Shown here piece after piece: positions 35,587 to 42,015 of a stretch of DNA of 64,000 bases (positions within the stretch are counted from its first letter, which is position 1; every line of letters begins with the position of its first letter). Made by a program: the position numbers and the translations under genes. A model generated the notes under the pieces. It worked only from the letters and a program-made list of their open reading frames with translations, ran no database searches and was not told the origin of the DNA. Source of the DNA: Vulcanisaeta thermophila (GTDB lineage Archaea > Thermoproteota > Thermoprotei > Thermoproteales > Thermocladiaceae); the NCBI RefSeq assembly GCF_001748385.1, contig NZ_BCLI01000004.1, positions 62,001-126,000 of the forward strand. The letters are read 5' to 3'.

Positions 35587-36924
<1,338 letters not shown>

Positions 36925-38243: not shown

Positions 38244-39653
38244 CTAAATTCTCAACTTACTTAGTACCCTATTTACTAGTTCCTCCGCCTCCCTGAAGTT
38301 GTACTCCCTCATCATGCCAATCTTACTGGCTGCTTCGGATCCCTCCGCGTGGATCATTGCGGTGAGTAGGTAACCGGCCAGGTGGCTTGCTGAGAGTTCC
38401 CTCACCAGGCTCATTATTTTGTACCTGGTCTCGCCATCCACTGCGCCGGCTAGGTACTTAGTTATGTAGCCCCTTTCATCGTTATTTCTTAAGTCGTCGT
38501 GGGATGGCATTGTGGCTATTAAACCGCCCGCTATGTCTATTAGTCCGTGTATCACGTCTATGAAGTGGGCGTTTGAGTATAGTTTGCTGACGTTTGTGTA
38601 CACTGGGTTTGGTACCGCTATGCCCTCGTCAATGATGGGCTCCAGGGCGGCCGCCATGGCGCCCATGCGCATTATCTCCTTATACATTATCATCTGGATG
38701 ATCCAGTCCCTAACGTGGGGTGCATTCTCAATCCCATTAGCCCTAGCGGCGAGTAATGCTGCGCCTAGGTATAAATTCGCGGTGGCCGCCCTGTAACTAA
38801 TGGCTGTGAACCTGTGGTACGTTGCGAAGTACCAAGCCAGGGGGCCAGCCATGTCCCACTCCCTAAAGAGGAATACCCTGTCCCAGGGTATGAATACGTG
38901 GTCGAATATGGTCAATGACTCAACCTCAAACCTGGCGGCTGAGTTGACGGCGTTTGGGTTACCATCATACTCAAGCACGGGCCTAACAATGAACTTAAGA
39001 CCCTTGGCATTGGCCGGGACCGCAAAGGCCACTGCATAGTCCCTGTCGCCCTCCACCATGGCCCTGTAGGGCAGTACTATTATTTCATTGGCCACGGGCC
39101 CCTGGGTGGTGTGTATCTTGGCGCCATTCACCACTATGCCGTCGTCCCTAACCTCCACGACCCTAAGGTACAGGTCGGGGTCCTGCTGCTCATGGGGTCT
39201 CTTGGCCCTGTGGCCTTTAACATCGGTCTGTGCAACGGCTATTGCCAGGTCGTTCTTGACCACATACTCGTAGTACTTCATGACCCTCTCGTAGTAATTA
39301 GTCCTGTACTTGCCATCCACTTTCCTTGCCATTATCATGAGGGAGAACAGTGCATCGCTGCCTATGGCCTGTACTATGTTGAATAAACCGTCAAATCTCA
39401 GGGTATCCTCATAAATCAACCTGTGCCTTGCCAGTAGGTCCTCGGTGTTCCTTGGGATTTTGAAGTACTTGCTTATTCTCCCGTAATTCGGGTCATCATA
39501 CAGCCTATCCTTACTATTGAATAAGTCGGCTGCGTGGGCAACGGCTATCCTGAGGACTGGGTGTGTGGTTATGTCATCAACCCTCTTACCCCTGTAGTAA
39601 ACCTCCCTACCATCCCTCACTGATTGGATGTACTCCTCGGAGGTCCTTGGCAT
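38244..39653 (-). CDS. 4-hydroxybutyryl-CoA dehydratase/HpaB-family flavoprotein lacking Fe-S cysteines
   Basis: 469 aa, acyl-CoA-dehydrogenase-fold flavoprotein of the HpaB/4-hydroxybutyryl-CoA dehydratase family. The FAD-region text AVAQTDVKGHRAKRPHEQQ and DPDLYLRVVEVRDDGIVVNG matches dehydratases closely. However, I find no cysteine anywhere, so the 4Fe-4S ligands known from the Clostridium enzyme (C99, C103, C299) are absent; the His ligand position is kept (YHRFTAISY, His280). It therefore resembles the type-2 dehydratase paralogues of other Crenarchaeota and probably has a different reaction. Acyl-CoA dehydrogenase is the upstream neighbour. Confidence 0.85.
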   Translation of the reverse strand: MPRTSEEYIQSVRDGREVYYRGKRVDDITTHPVLRIAVAHAADLFNSKDRLYDDPNYGRISKYFKIPRNTEDLLARHRLIYEDTLRFDGLFNIVQAIGSDALFSLMIMARKVDGKYRTNYYERVMKYYEYVVKNDLAIAVAQTDVKGHRAKRPHEQQDPDLYLRVVEVRDDGIVVNGAKIHTTQGPVANEIIVLPYRAMVEGDRDYAVAFAVPANAKGLKFIVRPVLEYDGNPNAVNSAARFEVESLTIFDHVFIPWDRVFLFREWDMAGPLAWYFATYHRFTAISYRAATANLYLGAALLAARANGIENAPHVRDWIIQMIMYKEIMRMGAMAAALEPIIDEGIAVPNPVYTNVSKLYSNAHFIDVIHGLIDIAGGLIATMPSHDDLRNNDERGYITKYLAGAVDGETRYKIMSLVRELSASHLAGYLLTAMIHAEGSEAASKIGMMREYNFREAEELVNRVLSKLRI

Positions 39654-39706: not shown

Positions 39707-40912
39707 TCAGGGCTTCCAGACACCACGCTTCAAAGCATCAAATATTGTTAGTAGGTTTATTTCATTGGTTCCCTCGTAAATCCTGGTAACCCTGTGATCC
39801 CTCCAGTACCTCTCCACATCGAACTCCTCGAAGTAACCGTAACCTCCAAATATTTGGATTGCATCATCAATCACCTTATTGGCCATTTCCGTGGCGAAGA
39901 CCTTGGTTGCCGAGGTTATTGCGGCCATGGCCCTGGGGTCAATCTTAAACTGTATGTACGAGTCCACGTAGTATGCTGCCCTGTAGAGCATGGACTTCGT
40001 AACCTCTATGAGCATGGCCATCCTGGCAAGCTTCTCCTGAATCAACTGGAAGTTAGCAATGGGCTGACCGAATTGAACTCTTTTCTGTGCGTACTCCAGG
40101 GCCTTATCGAACGCAGCCTCCATGAGGCCCAGCGCAATGGCTGCGGGCCCAAGCCTTGACACGTTGAAGTAAGCGAGGGTCCAGTAGAAGCCCTGGTTAA
40201 TACCCTTCTCGCCACCCACCACGTAGTCTATGGGCACCTCAACATTATCGAGGTATATCTCACCCACGGGTATTGCCCTCTGCCCCATCTTCCCCGTCAA
40301 CTTCCTAACCTGGACCCCAGGCCAGTCCGTGTGTATTATGAAGAGTGTCTGGCCCCTATGCCTCTTCTCCGGGTCAGTCTGTGCCAGGAGTACTCCGTAC
40401 TTTGCGGTGGGTGCGTTGGTTATGAAGGTCTTCATACCCCTAATTATGAATTTATCACCCTTCCTCTCCGCAATGGTTGATAACTGGGTTATGTCGGTAC
40501 CATGCTCAGGCTCCGTGTACGCCCCAAAGAACGTGGTCTCACCCCTATAAACGGGTGGTAGGTACTTCTTCTTCTGCTCCTCTGTGCCGAAGAAGTAAAG
40601 CAGGTGGGATGAGAATGCCCCACTGGTTATGGCTATGCCCAGGGTGGGCTCCACCCTGACCAGCTCCTCGGCAACAACCATGTCCGCTATGTACGTGGTG
40701 AACCCACCACCCCCGTACTCCGTGGGTATTGATGGCGCAATCAACCCCAGCTCACCAGCCTTCCTATACAGATCCCAGGGGAATTCCTCCTTCTTATCAT
40801 ACTCCCTGGCCAACTCGGGTGAGAAGTTCCTCTGTGCGAACTCCCTGGCGGTCTTCCTTAACAGCTTCAGTTCCTCGGCGTACTGGGGGAAGAGGTCTAG
40901 AATATCAGTCAT
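39707..40912 (-). CDS. Acyl-CoA dehydrogenase
   Basis: 401 aa FAD enzyme oxidising acyl-CoA to enoyl-CoA. Signatures: AYTEPEHGTDITQLST (FAD/substrate region), KTFITNAPTAKYGVLLAQT, and QIFGGYGYFEEFDVERYWRD with RIYEGTNEINLL at the C-terminus. The catalytic Glu is probably in that YEGTNE segment. It is transcribed in the same direction as the dehydratase-like gene with a 53-nt gap. A TATA-like CTTTATAAG (about 40937-40945) lies 30 nt upstream. Confidence 0.93.
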   Translation of the reverse strand: MTDILDLFPQYAEELKLLRKTAREFAQRNFSPELAREYDKKEEFPWDLYRKAGELGLIAPSIPTEYGGGGFTTYIADMVVAEELVRVEPTLGIAITSGAFSSHLLYFFGTEEQKKKYLPPVYRGETTFFGAYTEPEHGTDITQLSTIAERKGDKFIIRGMKTFITNAPTAKYGVLLAQTDPEKRHRGQTLFIIHTDWPGVQVRKLTGKMGQRAIPVGEIYLDNVEVPIDYVVGGEKGINQGFYWTLAYFNVSRLGPAAIALGLMEAAFDKALEYAQKRVQFGQPIANFQLIQEKLARMAMLIEVTKSMLYRAAYYVDSYIQFKIDPRAMAAITSATKVFATEMANKVIDDAIQIFGGYGYFEEFDVERYWRDHRVTRIYEGTNEINLLTIFDALKRGVWKP

Positions 40913-41088: not shown

Positions 41089-42015
41089 ATGTTCATTGAC
41101 TTTCACGTATGCCCATCAACGGACCTAGGACTGCTCAAGAGCAAATTAACTAGGCTTGGTGCGTTAAAGGCTGTTTTGCAACCCATTGATGTGGACCCCT
41201 CATTCCAATTCGCACTTAATAATGCATTGGGCGAGGTGGGTATTGGTGGTAAGGACCTCCTTGTGTGGTATAGGTTCAGCCGTGAGCTCATTAGTTTATG
41301 GAATGAGAGGATGTATGATAATACTAAGTTGGTGAGTGACGTGAGTAGTGGTGAGTATGGGGATTTCTTCATATCCATGGGTAGTGTGGACCCCGCCCTG
41401 GGTGCTAGGTACGTGGTGAGTAAACTGAATGAGATTGATAAACTGAAACTCCCAGGCATAGTGGTGTCCCCAGTCCTGCAGTTCTTCGATCCATTGAAAA
41501 ACAGGGCTTTTAGGTACGTGCTCAATTACGTTGAGAAAACCAATAAATTACTAATACTCCACCTGGACCCATGCCCTCGCAACGCACCCCTATGTATAAA
41601 CGCATCTGCACCGAGTATAGTGTCGGAGATAATGGATAGGTACAACATAACCCTGGTGGTGTCAGCACTGGGCATATCAGATGATATGTTCCTCACCTGG
41701 TTGAGGGATATGGCCAGGGTTATGAAGAGGCATGACAGGGTTTACCTAGAAACCTCAGGCATTAATTGCAATCTGATTAATACGCCTATGGGTAGGGGGC
41801 TGATTAGGAACATTGGTATTGAAAGGTTCCTATTCGGTTCGGGCTATCCATACGTTAGGTATAGAGGCGTGATTCGTGAGCTCAATTGCATAATGAGTGG
41901 GCTCAGTAAGGAGGCTCTGGATTACCTCATGTATTATAATGCCATGGAATTACTGAGACAGGTTAATGGAAATTATGGGGATTTGGCTTTTGATTTCAAG
42001 GCATCCTATGATTAA
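41089..42015 (+). CDS. Amidohydrolase-like TIM-barrel protein (COG2159-type) with altered metal site
   Basis: 308 aa. The fold resembles COG2159 amidohydrolases (decarboxylases/hydrolases), but key residues differ. The N-terminal HxH is HVC (MFIDFHVCPS), and the late FGSDYP metal-binding motif reads FGSGYPY. LLILHLDPC keeps a His. It may be a catalytically changed or non-metal member. It converges on the small membrane-protein gene with a 3-nt gap. Confidence 0.6.
   Translation: MFIDFHVCPSTDLGLLKSKLTRLGALKAVLQPIDVDPSFQFALNNALGEVGIGGKDLLVWYRFSRELISLWNERMYDNTKLVSDVSSGEYGDFFISMGSVDPALGARYVVSKLNEIDKLKLPGIVVSPVLQFFDPLKNRAFRYVLNYVEKTNKLLILHLDPCPRNAPLCINASAPSIVSEIMDRYNITLVVSALGISDDMFLTWLRDMARVMKRHDRVYLETSGINCNLINTPMGRGLIRNIGIERFLFGSGYPYVRYRGVIRELNCIMSGLSKEALDYLMYYNAMELLRQVNGNYGDLAFDFKASYD

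What the first reader, a model, noticed from the sequence alone, without database searches (positions are those of the whole stretch)
38244..39653. 4-hydroxybutyryl-CoA dehydratase homologue with no cysteine
All three Fe-S cysteine ligands are missing (the C299 position is Tyr287 by my reading), while the flavin region is kept. The paired acyl-CoA dehydrogenase suggests a CoA-thioester pathway, but the radical dehydration typical of the carbon fixation cycle seems impossible.
Basis: partly seen in the sequence, partly recalled or inferred. Interest (0 to 1): 0.55.

Follow-up and report, generated by a model that had tools for sequence, protein, structure and literature searches.

The report
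Iron-sulfur-free relative of 4HB-CoA dehydratase
A hot-spring archaeon carries a flavoenzyme that looks like the key carbon-fixation enzyme 4-hydroxybutyryl-CoA dehydratase but lacks every cysteine needed to hold its iron-sulfur cluster; it belongs to an already noted, widespread but functionally uncharacterised sister group, so it should not be read as evidence of carbon fixation.

Summary
The ORF at 38244-39653 (-) is 469 aa with no cysteine. C99, C103 and C299 of Clostridium 4-hydroxybutyryl-CoA dehydratase (4HBD) align with L90, A96 and Y287. Having no cysteine at all is ordinary here: 6 of 16 window ORFs of 400 aa or more have none. What matters is the family pattern. This is the 'type-2' 4HBD group, already described as lacking catalytic residues, with unknown function (PMC5797428). 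The genome has no other HpaB_N-family gene, hence no cysteine-bearing 4HBD. The model fits the 4HBD fold. Acyl-CoA genes cluster beside the family. Most likely it is an FAD-dependent, cluster-free acyl-CoA enzyme, my first guess being a 3-enoyl-CoA Delta-isomerase working with the adjacent acyl-CoA dehydrogenase. The substrate and the reaction are inferred, not shown.

The parts
38244..39653 (-). Cys-less type-2 4HBD homologue (HpaB/4HBD family), 469 aa
   Evidence: AlphaFold2 model pLDDT 95.4
39707..40912 (-). acyl-CoA dehydrogenase, 401 aa, directly upstream on the same strand (53 bases between)
   Evidence: Acyl-CoA_dh_N/M/1; best PDB match 5lnx, acyl-CoA dehydrogenase; pairing present in 5 of 5 Vulcanisaeta orthologue loci
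39366..39386 (-). loop that carries C99 and C103 in 4HBD; here L90 to A96, no Cys
38919..38921 (-). E245 = 4HBD E257 (E in 81, D in 5, Q in 1 of 87)
38814..38816 (-). H280 = 4HBD H292, the only cluster ligand kept (87 of 87)
38802..38804 (-). A284 = 4HBD Y296 (Ala in 86 of 87)
38793..38795 (-). Y287 = 4HBD C299 (Tyr in 87 of 87)
38343..38345 (-). E437 = 4HBD A460 (Glu in 87 of 87); 4HBD E455 is lost (A432)
41089..42015 (+). divergent Amidohydro_2 protein, neighbour conserved in the genus; role in the pathway unproven
   Evidence: same neighbour in L046, L047, L049, L059

Best explanation
It is an intact member of the 'type-2' sister group of 4-hydroxybutyryl-CoA dehydratase: an FAD enzyme acting on a CoA thioester that has no [4Fe-4S] cluster, and it is not the key enzyme of a 4-hydroxybutyrate carbon fixation cycle (about 0.9 for this part; FAD and CoA binding are inferred from fold and neighbours). 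The reaction I think most likely (about 0.35) is proton transfer at the alpha/gamma carbons, i.e. 3-enoyl-CoA to 2-enoyl-CoA isomerisation, the side activity of 4HBD that is recalled not to need an intact cluster. H280, freed from iron, and the new Y287/E437 would be acid/base groups next to the flavin. The adjacent acyl-CoA dehydrogenase would make or consume the enoyl-CoA, reoxidised through one of the genome's ETFs. Shown: homology, fold, residue swaps, gene pairing. Inferred: cofactor, substrate, reaction.
For: Fold: 1u8v and 6vjr lead, Z 47.8, rmsd 1.8-2.1 over 464 residues; HpaB next at Z 44.6 (Foldseek). Profile search of the PDB also ranks the two 4HBDs far above HpaB (499-502 vs 284 bits; that profile held 5 canonical rows among 52). 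Residue table: 0 of 87 with ligand Cys; His292, Tyr299, Glu460 87 of 87. Tree: canonical 4HBD is one clade (SH-aLRT 100) and the Cys-less rows are one side of a branch (73, weak). Context: acyl-CoA gene families are 28 of 117 at gene distance 1, and 39 lie within distance 2 against a shuffled mean of 27.4, 3 of 5000 shuffles as high. Operons such as L065 (hydroxyacyl-CoA dehydrogenase, type-2, thiolase, OB-fold partner, crotonase) and L044 (alcohol and aldehyde dehydrogenases, type-2, CoA-transferase, ligase). ETF present, 6 matches. No heme-copper oxidase.
Against: No biochemistry on any member was found. Neighbours vary and none is universal: 40 of 77 loci have an acyl-CoA family gene within 6 genes, so 37 of 77 do not by these profiles. 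Partner ligases score mostly below curated cut-offs or only reach a broad long-chain ligase family, so chain length is unknown. Retained E257/T190 and FAD would also suit a redox or radical reaction, for which an isomerase has no obvious need. In 2 of 84 loci (Entotheonella L106, L112) a flavin reductase follows the gene, which fits a monooxygenase better.
Confidence: 0.42

Rival explanations
1. Cluster-free radical 4-hydroxyacyl-CoA dehydratase: FAD with a relocated Tyr287/Glu437 pair (in place of Tyr296/Glu455) starts the ketyl-radical dehydration without iron.
For: Y296/E455 are lost and Y299/E460 gained together in 87 of 87 rows (Ala in 86 and Gly in 1 at 296), E257 and T190 largely kept. 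Operons with ligase, hydratase, hydroxyacyl-CoA dehydrogenase and thiolase resemble the 4-hydroxybutyrate to acetyl-CoA half-pathway (best in L065; parts of it in L064, L068, L071). Tandem with canonical 4HBD in Nitrosocaldus and relatives (L079, L081, L082, L084).
Against: In 4HBD the cluster ligands are needed for dehydratase activity (recalled mutagenesis, not read here). Where canonical 4HBD is present a second dehydratase seems redundant, and the M. sedula table lists Msed_1220 as not up-regulated while Msed_1321 is (PMC7078158; that Msed_1220 is type-2 is recalled).
Confidence: 0.18
2. Two-electron acyl-CoA oxidoreductase: FAD takes a hydride as in acyl-CoA dehydrogenases, with H280 or E437 as base.
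For: Distant fold match to acyl-CoA dehydrogenases (Z about 24) and a weak Acyl-CoA_dh_M hit. ETFs in the genome.
Against: An ordinary acyl-CoA dehydrogenase already sits next door. Identity to that superfamily is about 11-18% in the structural alignment.
Confidence: 0.2
3. Two-component monooxygenase of the HpaB type that hydroxylates a CoA thioester with reduced flavin supplied by a reductase.
For: HpaB fold (Z 44.6); 3 Flavin_Reduct genes elsewhere in the genome; flavin reductase directly behind type-2 in 2 of 84 loci; cytochrome bd-like genes suggest some oxygen use.
Against: HpaB residues R100 and H142 (active-site role recalled) are absent in 87 of 87; TIGR02309 scores 193.5 against a cut-off of 480.2; 82 of 84 loci show no flavin reductase nearby, while 2 of 4 HpaB-like control loci do.
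Confidence: 0.12
4. A 4HBD whose cluster is held by other conserved residues.
For: H292 is kept in 87 of 87 rows, and invariant Tyr299 and Glu460 could in principle bind iron.
Against: 0 of 87 rows have a Cys within four residues of the C103 or C299 columns, 14 of 87 near C99, none near both loops; this protein has no Cys at all.
Confidence: 0.02

Closest known systems
'Cren Type-2' 4-hydroxybutyryl-CoA dehydratase homologues (NCAV_0126 of Ca. Nitrosocaldus cavascurensis; Ramos-Vera et al. 2011 as cited in PMC5797428)
   Same: Homologous to 4HBD, lacks catalytic residues, archaeal, function unknown. The Nitrosocaldus-type tandem copies L079/L081/L082/L084 fall in the same Cys-less set (two of them in the tree)
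   Different: Orthologue with its own context: paired with acyl-CoA dehydrogenase in Vulcanisaeta. The paper passage gives no residue signature; that NCAV_0126 belongs with my rows is judged by genus and tandem order, not by sequence look-up
[quoted passage not shown] PDB 1U8V, 6VJR)
   Same: Fold over 464 residues, His292, Glu257, Thr190
   Different: C99, C103, C299, Y296 and E455 all replaced
HpaB, 4-hydroxyphenylacetate 3-monooxygenase oxygenase component (PDB 2YYG)
   Same: Pfam HpaB_N and HpaB, fold Z 44, no cluster
   Different: R100 and H142 absent, score below the TIGR02309 cut-off, reductase seldom nearby

Membership tests
Type-2 4HBD homologues | Homologous to 4HBD and lacking its essential catalytic residues (as stated in PMC5797428) | tested here: met
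Type-2 4HBD homologues | Groups with the second crenarchaeal group / Nitrosocaldus tandem copy in a tree | tested here: inconclusive
   same side of a branch, SH-aLRT 73 only; quick tree; the published tree was not seen
Canonical 4HBD (AbfD) | [4Fe-4S] ligands C99, C103, H292, C299 | tested here: not met
   only H292 kept
Canonical 4HBD (AbfD) | Catalytic Y296, E455, E257 (roles recalled) | tested here: not met
   E257 kept, Y296 and E455 replaced
Canonical 4HBD (AbfD) | Dehydrates 4-hydroxybutyryl-CoA | not testable with these tools
   needs enzyme assay
HpaB two-component monooxygenase | NCBIfam equivalog score over cut-off | tested here: not met
   TIGR02309 193.5 vs 480.2 bits; TIGR02310 113.1 vs 885.2 bits
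HpaB two-component monooxygenase | Active-site R100, Y104 and H142 (role recalled) | tested here: not met
   I93, A101 and V140 in the query; R100 and H142 0 of 87
HpaB two-component monooxygenase | Flavin reductase partner | tested here: inconclusive
   3 reductase genes elsewhere in the genome; next to type-2 in 2 of 84 loci
Acyl-CoA dehydrogenase | Pfam Acyl-CoA_dh domains over cut-off | tested here: not met
   only Acyl-CoA_dh_M, 23.4 bits vs cut-off 33.3

The most novel reading that the evidence does not exclude
A widespread archaeal and bacterial enzyme class that carries out 4HBD-like radical chemistry without iron-sulfur, using FAD and a Tyr/Glu pair moved three and five residues along from the 4HBD pair into the space the cluster left. 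By parsimony with the cluster-free HpaB outgroup, it would show the state from which 4HBD later acquired its cluster.
Probability: 0.12. Interest if true: 0.8.

Novelty: new member of a known kind. Interest (0 to 1): 0.4.

Why it matters
4HBD is used as a marker of 4-hydroxybutyrate carbon fixation in genomes and metagenomes. Type-2 proteins share its Pfam domains and fold but lack the residues that hold the cluster, so annotation by homology can overcall carbon fixation. A simple residue test (Cys at 99/103/299 against Tyr299 + Glu460) separated all 109 typed rows here, 22 and 87. In the one function statement on the group that I read it was 'unknown'. The signature makes its chemistry testable.

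Tried and rejected
Rejected: chance absence of Cys (the family-wide pattern argues against it, although Cys-free proteins are common in this window). Rejected: pseudogene of 4HBD (same-genus orthologues 83-90% identical, low dN/dS); broken copies occur in some drafts (G002, G003, G005), possibly sequencing errors, not examined further. Rejected: obligate partner of canonical 4HBD. In a 299-genome phylum sample 21 genomes have a match over 530 bits (type-2 band) and 15 of those also one at 320-370 bits (the score band of typed canonical 4HBD), 6 do not, this genome among them (bands, not residues; an association with canonical 4HBD therefore exists in some lineages). Anti-phage library: no hit.

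Caveat on the count of 87: most rows came from a scan with patterns AQTDVKG[DNH] and [QK][ATE][IV]GSDALF. The second pattern overlaps the C103 column and so selects against Cys there; the other counted columns were not in the patterns. Dropped before counting: fragment or duplicate loci L001, L008, L010, L013, L040, L041, hits spanning under 350 residues, and 10 identical rows (124 to 114). Rows were sorted into canonical and Cys-less by Cys at column 99, so that column is circular; the others are not. The tree left out 26 further near-copies. In the neighbour tally 7 of 84 loci had no target among the called ORFs, because long shadow ORFs on GC-rich contigs displace real genes, so neighbour counts are too low there; 15 near-duplicate loci were left out of the shuffle test.

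Led nowhere: ligase substrate prediction; the 1U8V structure paper and one DOI given from memory are not held; the search for 'type-2 4-hydroxybutyryl-CoA dehydratase' phrasings returned 0 papers.

Full report
What is there. The ORF 38244-39653 on the minus strand encodes 469 aa and contains no cysteine. It matches Pfam HpaB_N and HpaB well above cut-off. By sequence the closest solved structures are 4HBD from Clostridium aminobutyricum (1U8V, 218 bits) and a protein named vinylacetyl-CoA Delta-isomerase (6VJR, 217 bits; its entry title says 4HBD of N. maritimus), ahead of HpaB (151 bits). The AlphaFold2 model is confident (pLDDT 95.4) and superposes on 6VJR and 1U8V at Z 47.8 over 464 residues, with HpaB at Z 44.6 and acyl-CoA dehydrogenases at about 24 (Foldseek TM 0.93 for 1U8V).

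The organism is most likely a Vulcanisaeta: orthologues 84-93% identical by best tblastn segment lie in records titled Vulcanisaeta, and the same-genus matches that cover 277 residues or more are 83-90% identical. The genome is 99.78% complete by its record.

Residues. Against 1U8V numbering C99, C103 and C299 become L90, A96, Y287; H292, E257 and T190 are kept as H280, E245, T183; Y296, K300 and E455 become A284, R288, A432. In 114 aligned rows I separate 22 canonical 4HBD, 87 Cys-less and 5 HpaB-like. All 22 canonical rows have the three Cys. All 87 Cys-less rows have His at 292, Tyr at 299 and Glu at 460; 86 have Ala and 1 Gly at 296; none has Glu at 455; at 300 there is Lys in 49 and Arg in 38. 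So the Tyr and Glu that in 4HBD sit at 296 and 455 (roles recalled from published mutagenesis, not read here) are replaced by a Tyr at 299 and a Glu at 460. In both AlphaFold models the helix carrying H292, Y296 and C299 is 41 residues long (266-306 in the query; 279-319 in canonical L032). Tyr287 should therefore point where Cys299 does, into the cluster site. That is an inference; no coordinates were measured.

Total absence of Cys is a weak clue: 6 of 16 window ORFs of 400 aa or more have none, including the neighbouring acyl-CoA dehydrogenase. Most clade members have one or more Cys elsewhere.

No Cys-containing copy in this genome: one HpaB_N match and one protein match. In the phylum sample of 299 genomes, 21 have a type-2-band match and 15 of those also a canonical-band match (by score bands). 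In four genomes of family f44 (G210, G245, G256, G313) the two lie side by side, and in named Nitrosocaldus or Nitrososphaerales-type contigs L079, L081, L082, L084 the same tandem was typed by residues. In Metallosphaera yellowstonensis (L054) canonical and type-2 genes are about 3 kb apart, with an AMP-ligase overlapping the type-2 gene.

Neighbours. In Vulcanisaeta the acyl-CoA dehydrogenase is directly upstream in 5 of 5 orthologue loci, and a divergent AMP-forming ligase plus an amidohydrolase follow in the 4 whose contigs reach that far. In the window the ligase is missing between amidohydrolase and dehydrogenase, and its best match elsewhere in the genome is only 55% identical. Over 62 non-duplicate loci, acyl-CoA gene families make up 28 of 117 genes at distance 1, 3 of 74 at distance 5 and 6 of 67 at distance 6; 39 lie within distance 2 against a shuffled mean of 27.4, with 3 of 5000 shuffles as high. 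Recurrent sets are: hydroxyacyl-CoA dehydrogenase, type-2, thiolase, OB-fold protein, crotonase (L065); ABC importer with two class-III CoA-transferases, type-2 (L061, L062); alcohol and aldehyde dehydrogenase, type-2, ligase (L044, L109). A flavin reductase is next to type-2 in only 2 of 84 loci.

Phylogeny. With HpaB-like rows as outgroup, canonical 4HBD forms one clade (SH-aLRT 100) and the Cys-less rows one side of a branch with weak support (73); long branches meet, so the root position is unsure. Since the HpaB-like rows also lack the ligand Cys, the simplest reading is gain of the cluster on the 4HBD branch rather than loss here. This is parsimony, not proof.

Prior knowledge. PMC5797428 (passages read) reports a second crenarchaeal group, 'Cren Type-2', that lacks essential catalytic residues and has unknown function, and the tandem in Nitrosocaldus. 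PMC3654217 (passages) found no Type 1 4hbd in Caldivirga/Vulcanisaeta-like populations. PMC12794621 (passages, and introduction part 1 of 2 with Table 1) marks the 33-35% homologues of V. moutnovskia and V. distributa as 'Absent' and lists a 78% homologue for V. souniana; that those 33-35% entries are this gene is likely but was not looked up. PMC7078158 (passages) lists Msed_1220 as not and Msed_1321 as up-regulated. The core of the finding is therefore known. I did not see the 299/460 signature in the passages read, and the listings show no paper titled for it; subscription papers, among them Ramos-Vera 2011 and Berg 2010, were not read, so priority is not claimed.

Mechanism. Excluded with good confidence: cluster-dependent 4HBD. 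Favoured: a cluster-free FAD enzyme on CoA thioesters, with isomerase as first guess (0.35), acyl-CoA redox 0.2, cluster-free dehydratase about 0.18, monooxygenase 0.12, the rest unknown. Own-genome data fit low-oxygen life with ETF-linked acyl-CoA oxidation: no heme-copper oxidase, cytochrome bd-like genes, six ETF matches, three flavin reductases.

Noticed in passing
window 41089-42015 (+) to 40912: The AMP-forming ligase found between amidohydrolase and acyl-CoA dehydrogenase in four other Vulcanisaeta loci is missing here; nearest own-genome match 55% identical.
   Followed up: partly
G002:C6, G003:C3, G005:C17 (L040, L041, L013): The type-2 gene appears broken or frameshifted in three same-genus draft genomes; sequencing error or real decay not decided.
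   Followed up: no
L106:11504-12001, L112:11503-12000: In two Entotheonella genomes a flavin reductase directly follows the type-2 gene, hinting at a different (monooxygenase) use in that lineage.
   Followed up: partly
L030, L031, L033, L034, L035 (same genus): A second Cys-less paralogue (52-54% identical) exists in other members of the genus but not in this genome.
   Followed up: partly
window 35593-36924 (+): PALP-family protein (PF00291) that looks like a TrpB2-type tryptophan synthase beta chain (name recalled).
   Followed up: no
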